NCBI RefSeq assembly: GCF_020829495.1
Contig: NZ_JAIVFQ010000007.1
Coordinates: 1 to 64,000 of the forward strand
From: Nostoc favosum CHAB5714
Lineage (GTDB): Bacteria; Cyanobacteriota; Cyanobacteriia; Cyanobacteriales; Nostocaceae
Reading direction: 5' to 3'
Length of the DNA: 64,000 nucleotides
Shown here: positions 13,387-20,210 of the stretch, piece by piece
How the letters are laid out: every line of letters starts with the position of its first letter
Position numbering within the stretch: position 1 is the first letter of the stretch
Made by a program: the position numbers and the translations under genes
Notes under the pieces: model-generated
Told to the model about the DNA's origin: nothing
The model's database searches: none
Seen by the model: only the letters and a program-made list of their open reading frames with translations

Positions 13387-16300
13387 TCACTTAATATCAT
13401 CGCAGAGACGCTTATCGCTCTCATTCAAATTTGGGTTATTCTGCAAATAATCATGCAGCCAATTGCAACCCCGCACCAGCAATTGGTCTAAGTTATTCAC
13501 AGGCCACAACCGCGCTGTGTTGTCATCAGATGCCGTAGCGATGGTTTTGCCGTCCGGGCTAAAACTCACATTAAAGACACAGCTTTGATGCCTTTTGAAT
13601 TCGGCGAGCAATTGCCCGTTGAGCGTCCATAACCGCGCTGTGTTGTCAGCTGATGCTGTGGCGATGGTTTTAGCGTCCGGGCTGAAACTCACACCCCTGA
13701 CACTGCCTTGATGCCCCTTGAATTCGGTGAGTAGTTGCCCATTGAGCGTCCACAACCGCGCTGTGTTGTCAGCTGATGCTGTGGCGATGGTTTTAGCGTC
13801 CGGGCTGAAACTCACACCCCAGACATAGCCTTGATGCCCTTTGAATTCGGTGAGCAGTTGCCCATTGAGCGTCCACAACCGCGCTGTGTTGTCAGCTGAT
13901 GCCGTGGCGATAGTTTTGCCATCTGGGCTAAAACTCACACCCCTAACATAGCCTTGATGCCCTTTGAATTCGGTGAGCAGTTGCCCGTTGAGAGTCCACA
14001 ACCGCGCTGTGTTGTCATCTGATGCCGTGGCGATAGTTTTACCGTCCGGGCTGAAACTCACACCCCTGACACTGCCTTGATGCCCTTTGAATTTGGTAAG
14101 CAGTTGCCCATTGAGCGTCCACAACCGCGCTGTGTTATCAGCTGATGCCGTGGCAATAGTTTTGCCGTCCGGGCTGAAACTCACACCCCTGACACTGCCT
14201 TGATGCCCTTTGAATTTGATAAGCAGTCGCCCGTTGAGCGTCCACAACCGCGCTGTGTTATCAGCTGATGCCGTGGCGATAGTTTTGCCGTCCGGGCTGA
14301 AACTCACACCCCTAACATAGCCTTGATGCCCTTTGAATTTGGTGAGCAGTCGCCCGTTGAGCGTCCACAACCGCGCTGTGTTATCAGCTGATGCCGTGGC
14401 GATGGTTTTGCCGTCCGGGCTGAAACTTACACTTAAGACACTGCCTTGATGCCCTTTGAATTCGGTGAGCAGTTGCCCGTTGAGCGTCCACAACCGCGCT
14501 GTGTTATCAGATGATGCCGTGGCAATAGTTTTGCCGTCCGGGCTAAAACTCACACCCCCGACATAACCTTGATGCCCTTTGAATTTGGTGAGCAGTTGCC
14601 CGTTGAGCGTCCACAACCGTGCTGTGTTGTCATCTGATGCCGTGGCGATGGTTTTGCCGTCCGGGCTGAAACTCACACTTAAGACACTGCCTTGATGCCC
14701 TTTGAATTCGGTGAGCAGTTGCCCGTTGAGCGTCCACAACCGCGCTGTGTTATCAGATGATGCCGTGGCGATAGTTTTGCCGTCCGGGCTGAAACTAACA
14801 CCCCTGACACTGCCTTGATGCCCTTTGAATTTGGTGAGCAGTTGCCCGTTGAGCGTCCACAACCGCGCTGTGTTATCATCTGATGCCGTGGCGATGGTTT
14901 TGCCGTCCGGGCTGAAACTCACACCCCTGACACTGCCTTGATGCCCTTTGAATTCGGTGAGCAGTTGCCCGTTGAGAGTCCACAACTGCGCTGTGTTGTT
15001 AGCTGATGCCGTAGCGATGGTTTTGCCGTCCGGACTGAAATTAACACTTAAGACACTGCCTTGATGCCCTTGGAATCGGTTAAGTTCTTTGATTTTATCG
15101 AGAATAGTATCCAAAGCAAAAATAGGGCTGATAGCTGGATATTTTTCTAAAGGGCGACCATCTTTTACGAAAGTTTTTAACTCTTTCCCACTCTGCATTG
15201 CCGCCACCAATGATTCTAACTCGGCATACTCAAACTGTTTTAAGGCATTAACACCTGCTCGTTCTAATTCCGTTCCCTTTTGTGATTCTTTTTGTGCTGT
15301 CTGTGCTGCGCGTGTATCTCTATATGCTTTTGTAAGTGCTGCTTGTACTTGACTCAAAATAGTTTGAGCCTGTTTAGCTTTAAATTCTGCTTCTTGTTGT
15401 TGTCTATTTGCCTGTTGTACTTTCTTTTCAGCAATTTTGACTTGTTTGTTAGCTGTTTGGATTTTTTCCTCTGCTTGCAAGCGTTGTTCTCGCTCTCTTG
15501 CTAGTTCTGCTAATATTTCATTGCCCTGTTGTTGGCGAATGAACGCCACGAGATAATCATGCACCAGTTGATAACGGTCAGCTGGCGATTCTGGTAACAG
15601 CAATACTAACCTTGATGCCACAAAAATCTCTAACACCAAATCTAGTTTATCGGCTTCTACTGCCAAATCTGCGACTAACTCAGCACGAGTCTTCAGGGGA
15701 CGAGTACCATTTTCATCTGTAAGTAAATATAAAACCAGTCGAGCAACCTGTTCATTCTCCGCGCCACAATCTTGGATGACTTCTTCTAAAAACCGCTCAA
15801 CCAGTTTTTCTTTTGTACCAAACTGACGATAACTATCTAAACTTGTAATTTTCTCAGTTTGCAATTGCGTCCCCACAATTTGTAGCTCAATTGGGCGTAC
15901 CTCCCCCAACTCCCCTGCTAAATCTTGCACTAATTGATCAATTAGCTCAGGCTCAAGGTAAAATTGAGAACGTTCTGTTAAACTCTGCACCACAGCCTTA
16001 GCATCGACTGGCGAAAAGTTACCCAAGTAATAGCGAATATTTTTATCGAGAATATTATTATTAATTGCACTTAAATTAAATAAACGTTCTAATTCTAATA
16101 AATAATGTAAATAATCTTCCCGCAAAGACAAAATTACCTTGACAAAAGGAATATCTAGACAAACTCGCAAAAACTCATAAAACACTCGTCGTTGACTTTG
16201 GTCTAGATAAACAAAGAAAAACTCTTCAAACTGGTCAAACATTAAAACCGTCAACAAATTCCGGTCAGCATTTCTCCGTAATTGTTCTAAAATAGCTGCT

Positions 16301-18024
16301 GAAGAATCAAGATTAGCAAATAATTGATTACTTCTTACTTCCTCAAAAGCCTTAGCCAAACACCGCCCCAACATTCCTACCCAATCTGTATAAACTCGCA
16401 ACAAAATAGGTAAAGCATCTCGCTCACCAATTGCTTGCTGTTGCAATGCCGGGATTAACCCACCTTGCAAAATCGAACTTTTCCCCACTCCTGACTGACC
16501 ATGAATTACAGTCAATTTATGCTCAGTCCCGCCAATTCTTTCTCGCAAACGTTTAACATCTTGTCCCCGACCAGAAGCAGCAATTTCTTGAGCAATGGTT
16601 TCAGGATTTTCCACTTGCAACTGTGCAGAATTAATTGCCTGTCGCTGTGGGTTGAGATAAGATGCACCAACAAAAGCGCGGAAACCATACTGCTGTTCGA
16701 TTTGTAGTTGCTTTTGTTTAATCTGAAAAGCTTTGAGATATTCGCTTTGTTGAAAGTAGAGTAAGCGTAACCTTTCTAATATAGATATATATAATTGTGG
16801 GTTGTACTGATGATTACTTTCATCTTTCGCAGCTTCTAAATTAGTAATTGCTGCTTTAACTTCACCTAAACCCTGTTGTGATTTTGCTAAAATAAACCGA
16901 TATAAAGCAAATTGATATGGTTGTAAATTAGGTATCGCAGCTAATATTTGCAATGCTTGTCCTGCGTGTTTATGAGCTTCATCCCACTGTGACTGCTCTA
17001 AGGCTACCTCTGCCAAAAATCCATAATCTTGAGCCAACTGCAACGATGCTCCATAATTTTGATGTAGCGGCAGAGATTTTTCAACAAGGCTTTGCAACTC
17101 TGACCATTCCTGTAAACGTTGTAACACTTCACTCAGTTTAATAATATGTTTTGCAACTAAATCTGAACGTTGTGCTTGTTCAAAAATATCAATAGCTTGC
17201 TGAAAGTAAATTCTAGACTCTTGCCAATAGCGTTGATTTTCTGTCTGATTTTTTTCAGATTTGCGGTTATAAGCTGAAGCAATATTAACGAGTAATATAC
17301 CTTGTCGTTCTAAATAATTACTTTGTCGCCAGAACTCTAAACTTTGTTGATAATGCGCTAAAGCAGAATCTATCTGGTCATGTAGATAATCATTGAAGCC
17401 AAGCACAAAATCTAAACTTGCTTGAAGTGCTGCTTCTAATACTTCTCCTCGATTTTGCAAATCTTGACGGGCGGTTTCTAGTTCCCGGCACATTTGGGGA
17501 TTGGGCGTTATATCACCTGCAAAAATTTCATCACTTTTTTGCTGAAGGAAATTGACTAACTCATCGGTAGGGTTTTCAAAATCAATGATAGTTGCCCAAT
17601 TCTCTAAATCAGTTGCTAATCGAATAAATTTTTGCAGAACTGAATCATTAACCCACAACAATATCGGAAACGGGAAGTTTTTTCTAAACTCCTCCCGTAC
17701 TTGGTTAGCTGAAGTCAGAACTGTATCAATATCTTTAACCGACTCCAAACCAAAAACCATTAATGCTGGTGGCTGTTCATCTAAGAGTTGTTCGCGTATA
17801 TTTGTGTAAAGCGTTTTGACTGATGCAGGTAAAGTAATTTTGCTAACGTGTACAGGAGATAATTGGTGCAGGCGTTCTACCATGCGTTGACGTAAATCAA
17901 CATAGTTACAGCGTAGCAAAATCAGCGAAAATCCCCCCTGAGAAAGGGTAATTGTTCGCACCAGAGTTTGCAATGAATGCTCATTATCAGGGGCTAAATT
18001 CTCTGGCTCTTGCTGATTACTCAT
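13387..18024 (-). CDS. STAND-type NTPase with TPR-like region and 13 near-identical WD40 repeats
   Basis: A 1545-residue signalling/NLR-like protein of unknown ligand. Order: a conserved N-terminal domain (1-190); a helical TPR-like region (about 195-470); a nSTAND1-type ATPase with Walker A GQSGVGKS (509-516) and Walker B LTVLMFDQFEEFF (D597); a winged-helix/arm region (about 690-830); a long Gln/Ala/Lys coiled coil (about 835-920); a short linker; then 13 WD40 repeats of exactly 41 residues (984-1516) and a 29-residue tail. The repeats differ at only a few positions and are near-identical in DNA (13476-15075). The nearest upstream gene on the same strand is an AAA ATPase (18906-20210), a partnership I recall in other cyanobacteria. 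STAND proteins are ATP-switched oligomerising sensors; antiviral or developmental roles are inference. Confidence 0.85.
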   Translation of the reverse strand: MSNQQEPENLAPDNEHSLQTLVRTITLSQGGFSLILLRCNYVDLRQRMVERLHQLSPVHVSKITLPASVKTLYTNIREQLLDEQPPALMVFGLESVKDIDTVLTSANQVREEFRKNFPFPILLWVNDSVLQKFIRLATDLENWATIIDFENPTDELVNFLQQKSDEIFAGDITPNPQMCRELETARQDLQNRGEVLEAALQASLDFVLGFNDYLHDQIDSALAHYQQSLEFWRQSNYLERQGILLVNIASAYNRKSEKNQTENQRYWQESRIYFQQAIDIFEQAQRSDLVAKHIIKLSEVLQRLQEWSELQSLVEKSLPLHQNYGASLQLAQDYGFLAEVALEQSQWDEAHKHAGQALQILAAIPNLQPYQFALYRFILAKSQQGLGEVKAAITNLEAAKDESNHQYNPQLYISILERLRLLYFQQSEYLKAFQIKQKQLQIEQQYGFRAFVGASYLNPQRQAINSAQLQVENPETIAQEIAASGRGQDVKRLRERIGGTEHKLTVIHGQSGVGKSSILQGGLIPALQQQAIGERDALPILLRVYTDWVGMLGRCLAKAFEEVRSNQLFANLDSSAAILEQLRRNADRNLLTVLMFDQFEEFFFVYLDQSQRRVFYEFLRVCLDIPFVKVILSLREDYLHYLLELERLFNLSAINNNILDKNIRYYLGNFSPVDAKAVVQSLTERSQFYLEPELIDQLVQDLAGELGEVRPIELQIVGTQLQTEKITSLDSYRQFGTKEKLVERFLEEVIQDCGAENEQVARLVLYLLTDENGTRPLKTRAELVADLAVEADKLDLVLEIFVASRLVLLLPESPADRYQLVHDYLVAFIRQQQGNEILAELAREREQRLQAEEKIQTANKQVKIAEKKVQQANRQQQEAEFKAKQAQTILSQVQAALTKAYRDTRAAQTAQKESQKGTELERAGVNALKQFEYAELESLVAAMQSGKELKTFVKDGRPLEKYPAISPIFALDTILDKIKELNRFQGHQGSVLSVNFSPDGKTIATASANNTAQLWTLNGQLLTEFKGHQGSVRGVSFSPDGKTIATASDDNTARLWTLNGQLLTKFKGHQGSVRGVSFSPDGKTIATASSDNTARLWTLNGQLLTEFKGHQGSVLSVSFSPDGKTIATASDDNTARLWTLNGQLLTKFKGHQGYVGGVSFSPDGKTIATASSDNTARLWTLNGQLLTEFKGHQGSVLSVSFSPDGKTIATASADNTARLWTLNGRLLTKFKGHQGYVRGVSFSPDGKTIATASADNTARLWTLNGRLLIKFKGHQGSVRGVSFSPDGKTIATASADNTARLWTLNGQLLTKFKGHQGSVRGVSFSPDGKTIATASDDNTARLWTLNGQLLTEFKGHQGYVRGVSFSPDGKTIATASADNTARLWTLNGQLLTEFKGHQGYVWGVSFSPDAKTIATASADNTARLWTLNGQLLTEFKGHQGSVRGVSFSPDAKTIATASADNTARLWTLNGQLLAEFKRHQSCVFNVSFSPDGKTIATASDDNTARLWPVNNLDQLLVRGCNWLHDYLQNNPNLNESDKRLCDDIK
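13476..15075 (-). repeat. 13 tandem 123-bp units encoding WD40 blades
   Basis: Each unit encodes F-K-G-H-Q-G-S/Y-V-x-x-V-S-F-S-P-D and ends T-L-N-G-Q-L-L-T-E/K. Length is exactly 13 x 41 codons. Only the first and last units are noticeably diverged. The high DNA identity implies recent amplification or gene conversion. Confidence 0.9.
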
Positions 18025-18181
18025 AACATAAATAATTTATTTTATACTACAATCCGCTTGGGTTAAGTAGCGTAGTAGGTTGGGTTGAGGAACGAAACCC
18101 AACATGAATAAGGCTAACGCACCATCAACAATTGAAGGTGCATTACGCTAACGCGATAACACACCCTACTGAAATGGTTCC

Positions 18182-18575
18182 CGTTACAACCCAGACCGCT
18201 CCCGTTATAATCCAATACGCTTGGGTTAAGGCTAAAACTCTTTGTCAAAGTCAATTTTTTTACGAACCACAGAGACGCTGAGGGCACTGAGAGAAGAAAT
18301 AAATGCTTAACTGAACTGTATTGCGTTACAACCCAGACCGCTCCCGTTACAACCCAGACCGCTCCCGTTACAACCCAGACCGCTCCCGTTACAACCCAGA
18401 CCGCTCCCGTTACAACCCAGACCGCTCCCGTTACAACCCAGACCGCTCCCGTTACAATCCAGACCGCTCCCGTTACAATCCAGACCGCTCCCGTTACAAT
18501 CCAGACCGCTCCCGTTACAATCCAGACCGCTCCCGTTACAACCCAGACCGCTCCCGTTACAACCCAGACCGCTCC
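18182..18575. repeat. 21-bp tandem repeat array, about 13 copies, interrupted by a miniature element
   Basis: The unit is CGTTACAACCCAGACCGCTC plus C. One copy and a half lie left of the insertion (18182-18212) and 12 copies right of it (18324-18575). Copies 7-10 of the right block carry CAATCC instead of CAACCC, so variants are clustered. No spacers, so it is not a CRISPR array. Confidence 0.92.
18213..18323. repeat. Miniature element inserted into the 21-bp array
   Basis: Ends CAATACGCTTGGGTTAA (18213-18229) and TTAACTGAACTGTATTG (18307-18323). The flanks CGTTATAATC and CGTTACAACC are the same ten positions of the array unit, so removing the element and one flank restores the array phase. 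The interior is closely similar to the 46399-46553 element. Confidence 0.85.
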
Positions 18576-18632
18576 CGTTACGATTTTAATCAAGTCTAGG
18601 CGATTGGGCGTTGCATAAAATAGGAATGATTC

Positions 18633-18894
18633 TTGTGGGGTGGGCATCCTACCCATAGGTGTCAACTTAAGCTAAAATGCGTGTCCCACATACGTTTTAC
18701 CCCCCTTAATCCCCCCGATATATTGGGGGGAAAAGAAATGTAGTTCCCTCCCCTTTATAAGGGGAGGGTTAGGGTGGGGTGACGAGGATAGTCATGGTAA
18801 GTGAGTAGTTTTCAAGGGTTTTACGTTAAGTTGACACCAATGCATCCTACCCCGCCCGGAAATACAAAGGACGGGCAAGATACCCATCCCACAA
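18633..18894. repeat. Outer inverted-repeat element, TTGTGGGGTGGGCATCCT ends
   Basis: TTGTGGGGTGGGCATCCT (18633-18650) and AAGATACCCATCCCACAA (18877-18894) are imperfect inverted repeats; the outer element is interrupted by the element at 18655-18841. Confidence 0.6.
18655..18841. repeat. Nested miniature element with 11-bp target duplication
   Basis: Inverted ends ATAGGTGTCAACTTAA (18655-18670) and TTAAGTTGACACCAAT (18826-18841), one mismatch in 16. GCATCCTACCC flanks it on both sides (18644-18654, 18842-18852) as a perfect 11-bp direct repeat. Confidence 0.8.
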
Positions 18895-18905
18895 AACCAG
18901 CAGAT

Positions 18906-20210
18906 TCATAACCTAAATTCCTTGGCTTCAGCCAAAATCGGATTGATATCAAACCAAGAACCATCCTCATCCCGGTATTCAAATACAAACATACTGCGGA
19001 GCAAAAGTTCATATCTTTCATGACCTCTCAAGTTTTTCTCTTGCGTCACCTCACGCAGTAATTCCCATTCATCGGGCGTAATTGCTAAAGTTAGCTCATT
19101 GCGGCGTTGTTTAATCACCCTATCCACACACTCCCGCGACAAAGGTGGGTCTTCTTGCTGAAGACAGCGAAACAACAGCATCAACAAGTTACGCAAATGA
19201 CCACCGCTAACTTGGCAAAGTCGCTCTAAAGTATCAGGACTATCAAAAACCTCGGTAATTAAATGCTGGCTTTGTTCCCAATTGACACTAGGAAAAGCCC
19301 TCGCCATAATCATCTGTTGCAGCAGGGTGATTCCTTGTGAAAATTGTGAACCATCTTGTAGTTGCACAGGAATCATCGGCAAAACCTTGGGGTCTGCGCC
19401 AAAGCGATTTGTTAACCTTCCTAAAGCGTTGGAAAAAATCAACACTAACGGAATTGTATAAACAACATGACAATTTAGCTGGTTTAACTGTTCACCCCGT
19501 TCAACAAAGAGATATTCTGGCTGGTAATGACCGGAAGGCTTCAAAGAATTATCAACTCGGTCAAGATTATCTACAATTACCACCAGTCCTTTTTTACCTT
19601 GCTGCTTCAGTTTTTCTATAGCAGGCTTGAGCAATTCTTTGTTAATTGATTCTAAAATGCCATTGGTGCGCGGTTCTAAATATTGTCGTAACTGACCGCG
19701 AAGTTTAGGACTATCTTTAGTTTTGGCGGTAATCTTGGCAATACCTACAGACAACTCAGCCTCAACCCCAATGTCTAACGGCGTTTGCAAAAACTCTGAA
19801 ATTTCCGTAAATAGATTTTTAAAGTATCCTGGTTTGAGATTAATTTTGATTGCTTCTAGACTTTGACTCACCTCACGAGCTACTGCCAGTAAAATATCTG
19901 TAACATCAATATCAGCCATATCTAGGCTTTGGCTAGACTCGAAATAAACCACATGAAATCCCTGCTGCTCTAACTCTGCCTTTAGCCGCAGTAACTCAGT
20001 GGATTTGCCACAGCCGATATGTCCGGTAAATAATTGGCAAGTAGGTTGCTCAGGTGCAAGGCGGGTGATAGTTCGCCCAAGTTCTTCAATAATCTTGGCA
20101 CCACGCACTTTAGAGAAATCAATATAATATTGTCTATCCTCCGGTTTGCTCACAACCAGAGTCTTACTGGGGTTGCAAGCTTGAAAAAACCTGACTAAAT
20201 CTAGTTTCAT
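18906..20210 (-). CDS. AAA-type P-loop ATPase, probable partner of the STAND-WD40 protein
   Basis: 434 residues from ATG 20210 (a GTG one codon earlier is also possible). N-terminal YYIDFSKVRGAKIIEELGRT precedes Walker A GHIGCGKST (63-71); Walker B is LVVIVDNLDRV with D214, followed by a sensor-like stretch and a helical lid with SGGHLRNLLMLLFRCLQQ (about 345-362), the pattern of AAA/ORC-like ATPases. C-terminal residues (about 385-430) look winged-helix-like. No membrane segment. It is upstream of and co-directional with the 1545-residue STAND-WD40 gene, separated by a repeat-filled gap, so co-transcription may be impaired here. Function is unknown; a regulatory or loader ATPase for the STAND protein is inference. 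Confidence 0.75.
   Translation of the reverse strand: MKLDLVRFFQACNPSKTLVVSKPEDRQYYIDFSKVRGAKIIEELGRTITRLAPEQPTCQLFTGHIGCGKSTELLRLKAELEQQGFHVVYFESSQSLDMADIDVTDILLAVAREVSQSLEAIKINLKPGYFKNLFTEISEFLQTPLDIGVEAELSVGIAKITAKTKDSPKLRGQLRQYLEPRTNGILESINKELLKPAIEKLKQQGKKGLVVIVDNLDRVDNSLKPSGHYQPEYLFVERGEQLNQLNCHVVYTIPLVLIFSNALGRLTNRFGADPKVLPMIPVQLQDGSQFSQGITLLQQMIMARAFPSVNWEQSQHLITEVFDSPDTLERLCQVSGGHLRNLLMLLFRCLQQEDPPLSRECVDRVIKQRRNELTLAITPDEWELLREVTQEKNLRGHERYELLLRSMFVFEYRDEDGSWFDINPILAEAKEFRL

What the first reader, a model, noticed from the sequence alone, without database searches (positions are those of the whole stretch)
13387..20210. AAA ATPase plus STAND-WD40 receptor-like pair
Two co-directional genes encode a P-loop AAA ATPase (Walker A at 63-71, D214) and a 1545-residue protein with TPR-like, STAND ATPase, coiled-coil and WD40 parts. 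This is the architecture of NLR-type sensors, several classes of which are now known to act in bacterial immunity. I know similar pairs in cyanobacteria but no defined ligand or output. The N-terminal domain (1-190) is not one I can name and may be the effector.
Basis: partly seen in the sequence, partly recalled or inferred. Interest (0 to 1): 0.75.

Follow-up and report, generated by a model that had tools for sequence, protein, structure and literature searches.

The report
Paired ATPase and swappable-sensor NLR-like receptor
A cyanobacterial gene pair, found together again and again, joins a small ATPase to a large immune-receptor-like protein whose first domain appears to be a plug for that ATPase while its sensing end can be swapped; it looks like a two-part signalling relay that no paper we saw describes.

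Summary
On the minus strand a 434-aa AAA-type ATPase (18906-20210) precedes a 1545-aa protein (13387-18024) with a nameless N-terminal domain (NTD, about 12-170), TPRs, nSTAND1 ATPase, linker and 13 very similar WD40 blades.

The pairing is conserved. Of 386 cyanobacterial genomes, 82 have ATPase and NTD, 3 only the ATPase, 4 only the NTD, 297 neither. Of 80 named ATPase loci, 61 have an NTD gene directly downstream. Of nine plasmids with an ATPase match, the seven closest are exactly the seven with the NTD, in equal copy number. ATPase and NTD co-diverge pair by pair (r 0.84; shuffles within genomes at most 0.56).

The NTD matches no known family. It occurs alone beside the ATPase, and in 161 loci the only two proteins with tandem NTDs follow two consecutive ATPase genes, one bearing a TIR domain. 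The sensor end differs (WD40 or CHASE2) between two syntenic, near-identical loci.

Best reading: a sensor-plus-helper, NLR-like relay. Immunity is plausible but unproven; no defence family was found among nine flanking genes. New variant of a known kind.

The parts
18906..20210 (-). AAA/KAP-type P-loop ATPase, 434 aa (proposed helper): Walker A 20001-20024, Walker B 19557-19583, SGGHLRNLL 19182-19208, C-terminal EYRDEDGSWFDINP 18939-18980; the end looks like a winged helix (inferred from the predicted helix and strand order)
   Evidence: AF2 model pLDDT 92.2, pTM 0.92; nearest solved folds TnsC Z 15.9, ORC/Cdc6 about 15, archaeal ATPase 2qen 14.9, NRC4 13.6, CED-4 13.5
13387..18024 (-). Partner protein, 1545 aa: NTD-TPR-nSTAND1-linker-WD40 (proposed sensor)
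17515..17991 (-). NTD, residues about 12-170: five-stranded alpha/beta domain, proposed ATPase-docking adaptor
   Evidence: AF2 model of residues 1-472, pLDDT 90.4; conserved C39, N40, G92, L93, N107, R110, W124, D139; no Pfam family or PDB relative found
16690..17499 (-). TPR superhelix, residues about 176-445
15442..16572 (-). nSTAND1 ATPase, residues 485-861; Walker A 16477-16500, Walker B 16219-16242
13387..15069 (-). WD40 array, 13 blades, and C-terminal tail; swappable sensor end
18025..18905 (.). Intergenic stretch with 21-bp tandem repeat at 18324-18581

Best explanation
A two-gene NLR-like relay. The large protein is the sensor: its C-terminal WD40 array (or, in relatives, CHASE2 or unnamed ends) meets a signal, the nSTAND1 ATPase switches and probably oligomerises, and the N-terminal domain, carried on a TPR arm, contacts and switches the separately encoded AAA/KAP-type ATPase. 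That ATPase looks like a bare nucleotide-binding, lid and winged-helix module, the core of an NLR without sensor or effector, and acts as the helper that forms the output assembly; in rare variants the output is a TIR domain fused to it. Shown here: the genes, domains, conserved pairing, co-divergence, doubled NTDs with doubled ATPases, TIR fusions, a sensor swap. Inferred: physical docking, direction of signalling, oligomerisation, output. A role in immunity or programmed cell death is somewhat more likely than not, and not shown.
For: Presence in the same 386 genomes: both 82, ATPase only 3, NTD only 4, neither 297. Same-strand NTD gene within 1.5 kb downstream at 61 of 80 named loci and for 106 of 115 ATPase frames in a second set that shares some genomes with the first (6 without, 2 fragments, 1 at an edge). 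Distance matrices of 106 pairs correlate at 0.84; 1000 shuffles within genomes mean 0.34, maximum 0.56; true partner best for 62 of 71, 25 expected. Plasmids: of nine ATPase records among 72,556, the seven with 55-74% identity are the seven NTD records, with the same number of places of each. Of 140 NTD proteins in 161 loci only 2 have tandem NTDs, both after two consecutive ATPase genes; a third such operon has two separate NTD genes. TIR on the second ATPase in all three, E 1.2e-31, 1.5e-33, 1.3e-30. Acidobacterial plasmid: ATPase-like frame followed by an NTD-like TPR frame. Sensor swap at a locus with both flanks conserved: L111, ATPase 98%, NTD 93%, TPR 85%, nSTAND1 85%, then CHASE2 for WD40. 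ATPase fold nearest TnsC, ORC/Cdc6, NRC4, CED-4.
Against: No complex was predicted or measured. 12 of 80 named ATPase loci with at least 600 bp downstream lack an NTD gene there, one has it inverted, one 3.6 kb away, 5 end at a contig edge. NTD genes without an ATPase neighbour exist, and the copy rule has exceptions (L251: one ATPase, two NTD genes; L119: an extra NTD gene). The two tandem-NTD operons may share one origin. Co-divergence of neighbours could reflect co-inheritance alone. Nostoc plasmid p057_J has a distant ATPase relative without NTD. No effector is recognisable on the window's pair. Eight of nine flanking genes have metabolic or general Pfam families, the ninth none, and in 9 of 34 relatives the pair keeps the same glcEF-like neighbours, unlike a typical mobile defence island.
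Confidence: 0.5

Rival explanations
1. Same wiring, but for ordinary environmental or developmental sensing rather than immunity: the sensor reads a cell-state or outside cue and the ORC/TnsC-like ATPase acts on DNA or on a regulatory complex. (Not exclusive of the relay above; it concerns the purpose.)
For: CHASE2 in place of WD40 in L111; glcEF-like neighbours kept in 9 of 34 loci compared, besides the window; no defence family among nine flanking genes; ATPase fold best matched by DNA-handling TnsC and ORC; ATPase plus NTD-only pairs kept in L068 and L069.
Against: TIR-bearing variants, a conjugative plasmid copy beside NB-ARC, TIR and CHAT genes, sensor turnover and decayed copies in the window's own genome fit conflict systems better.
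Confidence: 0.3
2. The NTD is the effector and the ATPase restrains or deploys it.
For: Conserved polar residues C39, N40, N107, R110 and the invariant D139 in the NTD; C39/N40 and G92/L93 lie just after predicted strands 1 and 3, where an active site could sit (inference); NTD-only partners beside the ATPase.
Against: TIR outputs are added on the ATPase, and in those operons NTDs match ATPases in number; stand-alone NTD genes without a neighbouring ATPase occur (two inspected), unlike a toxin needing a restraint. No match to any enzyme family.
Confidence: 0.15
3. The ATPase is a dedicated chaperone that loads or resets the large STAND protein, like MoxR with vWA proteins, rather than a downstream helper.
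For: AAA ATPase with a constant client domain and variable remainder; a distant relative of the ATPase is fused to a SAV_2336-type N-terminal region next to MoxR on Nostoc plasmid p057_J.
Against: NTD-only partners leave nothing large to load; TIR fusion to the ATPase implies output.
Confidence: 0.2
4. Chance or passive neighbours with no shared function.
For: None beyond the usual caution that neighbours are co-inherited.
Against: Presence/absence, adjacency at several paralogous loci, plasmids, within-genome matching, and a weak case in a second phylum.
Confidence: 0.02

Closest known systems
WRAP/STAND proteins of Nostoc (Npun_R6612), coupled to a TIR-STAND gene
   Same: Cyanobacterial STAND ATPase with recently amplified WD40 blades, coupled to a second ATPase gene; proposed role in prokaryotic innate immunity (passages of PMC9218822, citing Dunin-Horkawicz 2014, which I did not read; passages of PMC6805158).
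   Different: There the second STAND carries an N-terminal TIR. Here the second ATPase is a bare module, TIR is rare and C-terminal, and the partner has NTD and TPRs before the STAND. In Npun_R6612 a blade is at residues 670-710, too early for this layout (inference; its sequence was not examined).
nSTAND1 proteins of EACC1 and FGS/DGR conflict systems
   Same: Same STAND class at the centre, variable C-terminal sensors; KAP ATPases also occur in such systems (passages of PMC8195603; PMC10907252).
   Different: The passages seen describe EAD, TIR or peptidase N-termini and no dedicated AAA partner with this NTD.
MoxR-vWA ternary systems with VMAP or iSTAND (Kaur 2020)
   Same: ATPase plus constant module plus fast-changing parts, in multicellular bacteria (passages of PMC7159879); a distant relative of this ATPase is fused in a MoxR operon.
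   Different: No MoxR or vWA family among the nine flanking genes scanned.
Sensor-helper NLR pairs of plants (recalled, not tested)
   Same: Sensor with variable end acting through a separate helper ATPase.
   Different: No sequence relation claimed; the helper here lacks sensor repeats of its own.
TnsC, ORC/Cdc6, archaeal ATPase_2 and CED-4/NRC4 modules
   Same: Closest solved folds to the ATPase.
   Different: 8-17% identity in the rows listed; no transposition or replication family among the nine flanking genes.

Membership tests
STAND NTPases (nSTAND1), partner protein | nSTAND1 profile above its curated cut-off | tested here: met
   121.5 bits vs 27.1, residues 485-861
STAND NTPases (nSTAND1), partner protein | Intact Walker A and Walker B | tested here: met
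   GQSGVGKS 509-516, MFDQFEEF 595-602
NLR-type tripartite receptor | Central NTPase with C-terminal sensor repeats | tested here: met
   nSTAND1 then 13 WD40 stretches
NLR-type tripartite receptor | N-terminal effector or homotypic adaptor domain of a known class | tested here: inconclusive
   NTD matches no Pfam family and no PDB sequence at E below 0.2; behaves as a partner-linked domain
Antiviral STAND (Avs) and other catalogued defence proteins | Match to PADLOC models beyond generic repeats | tested here: inconclusive
   Partner hits only HEAT-ARM_XIII over the WD40s and a TPR model; ATPase hits candidate system PDC-S20 (2.4e-06, 25 bits) and mad8 (7.5e-04) over the P-loop domain; no cut-offs are given
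Antiviral STAND (Avs) and other catalogued defence proteins | Protection against phage | not testable with these tools
   needs an experiment
KAP NTPases (ATPase gene) | KAP profile above its cut-off | tested here: met
   27.5 vs 20 bits; one plasmid relative is annotated KAP family NTPase
KAP NTPases (ATPase gene) | Membrane segments inserted in the P-loop domain (recalled) | not tested
   no membrane prediction was run
MoxR-vWA ternary systems | MoxR ATPase and vWA gene alongside | tested here: not met
   nine flanking window genes scanned with Pfam: neither family
WRAP-STAND/TIR-STAND operon | STAND with highly similar WD40 blades | tested here: met
   13 blades, mean pairwise DNA identity 0.878
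WRAP-STAND/TIR-STAND operon | Coupled STAND gene with N-terminal TIR | tested here: not met
   coupled ATPase has no TIR in the window; TIR is C-terminal in three relatives

The most novel reading that the evidence does not exclude
Filamentous cyanobacteria run a modular sensor-helper network built like plant NLR pairs: each AAA helper is addressed by its own NTD plug, the plug is bolted to interchangeable sensors (WD40, CHASE2 and others), outputs such as TIR are bolted to the helper, and the plug-socket match keeps parallel circuits in one cell apart.
Probability: 0.35. Interest if true: 0.82.

Novelty: new variant of a known kind. Interest (0 to 1): 0.6.

Why it matters
It turns a vague NLR-like protein into a defined two-part system with a testable interface: an unnamed domain found in 86 of 386 cyanobacterial genomes that appears to address a dedicated ATPase. 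If the plug-socket reading is right, bacteria use insulated sensor-helper relays, the NTD is a new adaptor class, and TIR-bearing variants give an easy read-out. It would also give a class of unexplained cyanobacterial WD40-STAND receptors a downstream partner.

Tried and rejected
NTD as a known domain: no Pfam hit for it, only noise-level hits for its 60 relatives, none in PDB sequences below E 0.2. NTD as a degenerate copy of the ATPase, of nSTAND1 or of TIR: profile comparison found nothing. So my early idea 'inactive STAND' (notes 1 and 2) is dropped as unproven.

A phage origin: no ATPase match in 50,697 phage records at E 0.01. A natural fusion of ATPase and NTD: none in 161 loci. A split partner gene in L146 was an artefact of masked bases; L118 and L063 end beside transposase-like frames and L114 and L173 look frameshifted, read by eye from the frames, so they are not used as stand-alone NTDs. 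The long frame in L057 (674 aa) has only ATPase matches in Pfam. An EAD1-like tail after the TIR, suspected from memory, had no Pfam match and is not claimed.

Orphans: I picked ten genomes of one family because the lists showed NTD genes and ATPases apart. All ten hold a full-length partner gene without ATPase neighbour; nine hold an ATPase without NTD neighbour, and in the tenth (G195) that ATPase lies at a contig edge and cannot be judged (L088 and L090). Ten chosen genomes are not a rate. Divergence profiles match orphan to orphan best in 7 of 9 testable genomes, not in G099 and G129, and with lower r (0.58-0.64) than adjacent pairs.

Recent re-amplification of the blades is only modestly supported: window blades average 0.878 identity to each other and 0.79-0.84 to those of five relatives, but L052 blades are as like L113's (0.866) as each other (0.863; only 5 of L052's blades were caught by my motif).

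Literature: seven searches and passages of five papers showed no description of this pair; subscription papers, Dunin-Horkawicz 2014 among them, were not readable.
Full report
WHAT IS THERE. The window is the start of contig C219 of an 8.5-Mb genome whose closest named relatives in the search are Nostoc. On the minus strand lies a 434-aa ATPase (18906-20210) and, 881 bp further, a 1545-aa protein (13387-18024). The ATPase has intact Walker motifs and passes Pfam cut-offs for KAP_NTPase and AAA_22. The partner has a nameless N-terminal domain (NTD), TPRs, nSTAND1 with intact Walker motifs, a linker, and 13 WD40 blades.

STRUCTURE. The AF2 model of residues 1-472 (60-sequence alignment) has mean pLDDT 90.4: helix 12-27, then five strands alternating with helices to residue 169, then TPR helices. 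The ATPase model has pLDDT 92.2 and pTM 0.92; its nearest solved structures are TnsC (Z 15.9, rmsd 3.9, 286 aligned), Drosophila ORC/Cdc6 (15.0), an archaeal ATPase (2qen, 14.9), with NRC4 (13.6) and CED-4 (13.5) close behind. The top rows are within about one Z unit of one another and the match is to a common module, so it is an ORC/TnsC/STAND-type ATPase, not assignable more finely; the winged-helix end is inferred from predicted helices and strands. The fold of the NTD could not be named.

THE PAIR IS REAL. Searching the same 386 cyanobacterial genomes with the ATPase and with an NTD profile gave 85 and 86 positives at E 0.001; both 82, ATPase only 3, NTD only 4, neither 297. These genomes are related, so this is a pattern, not a p-value. 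In the order of the window's genome 259 of 388 genomes have the ATPase at E 1e-40 with the AAA-TIR protein as query. In a second set of stretches, mostly chosen by ATPase hits and sharing some genomes with the first, 106 of 115 ATPase frames have it, 6 do not, 2 are fragments, 1 is at an edge; two of the six are the first ATPases of two-ATPase operons. Median gap 75.5 bp; 10 of 106 have the 4-base overlap and 39 overlap or touch, but frames were started at the first possible codon, so overlaps are upper bounds.

PLASMIDS. Nine of 72,556 plasmid records hold an ATPase match and seven an NTD match. The seven NTD records are exactly the seven ATPase records with 55-74% identity, all cyanobacterial, with equal numbers of places (AP018277 2 and 2, CP151100 2 and 2, CP151102 2 and 2, the other four 1 and 1). 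The other two ATPase records are distant: Nostoc p057_J (23%), where the ATPase-like region ends a SAV_2336-type protein next to MoxR, and an Acidisarcina plasmid (27%, Acidobacteriota). In the latter an ATPase-like frame is followed, with a four-base overlap in my frames, by a frame with TPRs and a partial NTD match (E 4e-06 among the frames of four loci); the record's own annotation starts that gene 0.67 kb later, and the ATPase frame as I called it starts after the Walker A region, so this case is weak. On the conjugative Acaryochloris plasmid pMB06 the pair sits beside NB-ARC, TIR and CHAT genes.

CO-DIVERGENCE. For 106 pairs from 60 genomes the ATPase and NTD distance matrices correlate at r 0.84. 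Shuffling NTDs only among pairs of the same genome, which keeps species history, gives mean 0.34 and maximum 0.56 in 1000 shuffles. In the 25 genomes with several pairs the true partner has the best-matching divergence profile for 62 of 71, against 25 expected. This shows that the pairs travel and diverge as units; it does not by itself show contact.

THE NTD IS THE CONSTANT LINK TO THE ATPASE. Some loci reduce the partner to the NTD alone: 158 and 156 aa in L068 and L069, where the next genes are on the other strand; L098 and L138 also have an NTD of about 160 aa with no receptor gene in the next three frames. Among 140 NTD proteins in 161 loci just two carry tandem NTDs (L066, L225), and these are the only loci where two intact ATPase genes in a row precede one NTD gene (L162 also shows two ATPase frames, which look like pieces of one broken gene). 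A third two-ATPase operon (L246) has two separate NTD genes. Exceptions to one NTD per ATPase are L251 (one ATPase, two NTD genes) and L119 (an extra NTD gene upstream). In all three two-ATPase operons the second ATPase carries a C-terminal TIR domain (E 1.2e-31, 1.5e-33, 1.3e-30). TIR fusions are rare: in the capped list only two matches run through the TIR part (G024, G637). L066 and L225 may share one origin, so the rule rests on two or three events.

THE SENSOR END TURNS OVER. The window's pair sits downstream of glcF/glcE-like genes (Pfam: cysteine-rich/4Fe-4S and FAD-binding; the name glc is mine). The same neighbour is found in 9 of 34 loci compared (L051, L052, L055, L056, L111, L113, L114, L115, L125), but not in the equally close relatives L053, L054, L057 and L112. 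In L111 (Nostoc sp. CHAB 5824) genes on both flanks match, the ATPase is 98% identical, NTD 93%, TPR 85%, nSTAND1 85%, but the WD40 part is replaced by a CHASE2 domain (E 3.5e-66). In L051 the ATPase is 96% identical while the partner falls to NTD 75%, TPR 46%, nSTAND1 67%. Partners in L054, L060, L062 and L121 end without WD40 in stretches that Pfam does not name. Three further copies in the window's genome are decayed: C34 (ATPase truncated), C110 (ATPase start followed by what reads as a later fragment), C88:13869 (ATPase missing and NTD gene cut to 296 aa, where the relative G125 has both genes).

MECHANISM. Taken together: a variable sensor on a STAND switch, an NTD that goes with the ATPase and largely in the same number, and an ATPase that is a bare NLR-like core to which a TIR can be attached. 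The simplest reading is sensor to NTD to ATPase to output. Contact, direction and output in the window's own pair, which has no TIR, are inferred. Rivals are ordinary environmental signalling with the same wiring (0.3; not exclusive of the relay), chaperone action on the large protein (0.2) and NTD as effector (0.15).

IMMUNITY. For: TIR variants, a plasmid copy beside NB-ARC/TIR/CHAT genes, sensor turnover, decay. Against or neutral: kept neighbours in part of the relatives, no defence family among nine flanking genes (eight with metabolic or general families, one of them a trypsin/PDZ protease of the Deg kind by recall), CHASE2 as a sensor, only weak matches to catalogued defence models. I hold immunity or cell-death control somewhat more likely than not, unproven.

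NOVELTY. Recently amplified WD40-STAND proteins and coupled ATPase genes in cyanobacteria are in print (passages of PMC6805158 and PMC9218822), as are nSTAND1 and KAP ATPases in conflict systems (passages of PMC8195603, PMC7159879, PMC10907252). I found no description of this AAA-NTD pair in seven full-text searches, which do not cover most subscription journals. Hence: new variant of a known kind.

Noticed in passing
window 18324-18581: A 21-bp tandem repeat, 12.3 copies and 99% alike, between the two genes; all 12 exact matches of its 18-base core in the genome are here, so it is not a dispersed repeat with that core.
   Followed up: yes
L166, L174, L185, L187, L088, L090: ATPases of about 450 aa without NTD neighbour, with a gene resembling shikimate dehydrogenase (by eye) in the next two frames; related genomes hold a full-length partner gene alone elsewhere.
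   Followed up: partly
L020 8798-9301; L255 12714-13244; short frames: Stand-alone NTD genes recur in Nostoc and relatives; the two inspected have no ATPase beside them. A possible free competitor for the ATPase.
   Followed up: partly
L222 6207-9131: Nostoc plasmid p057_J: SAV_2336-type protein ending in a distant relative of this ATPase, next to MoxR; links the ATPase family to ternary conflict systems.
   Followed up: partly
L101: ATPase plus 163-aa NTD followed 359 bp on by a 2087-aa protein that reads like a Ser/Thr kinase at its start.
   Followed up: no
G000 contigs C34, C110, C88: Decayed copies of the pair in the window's own genome.
   Followed up: partly
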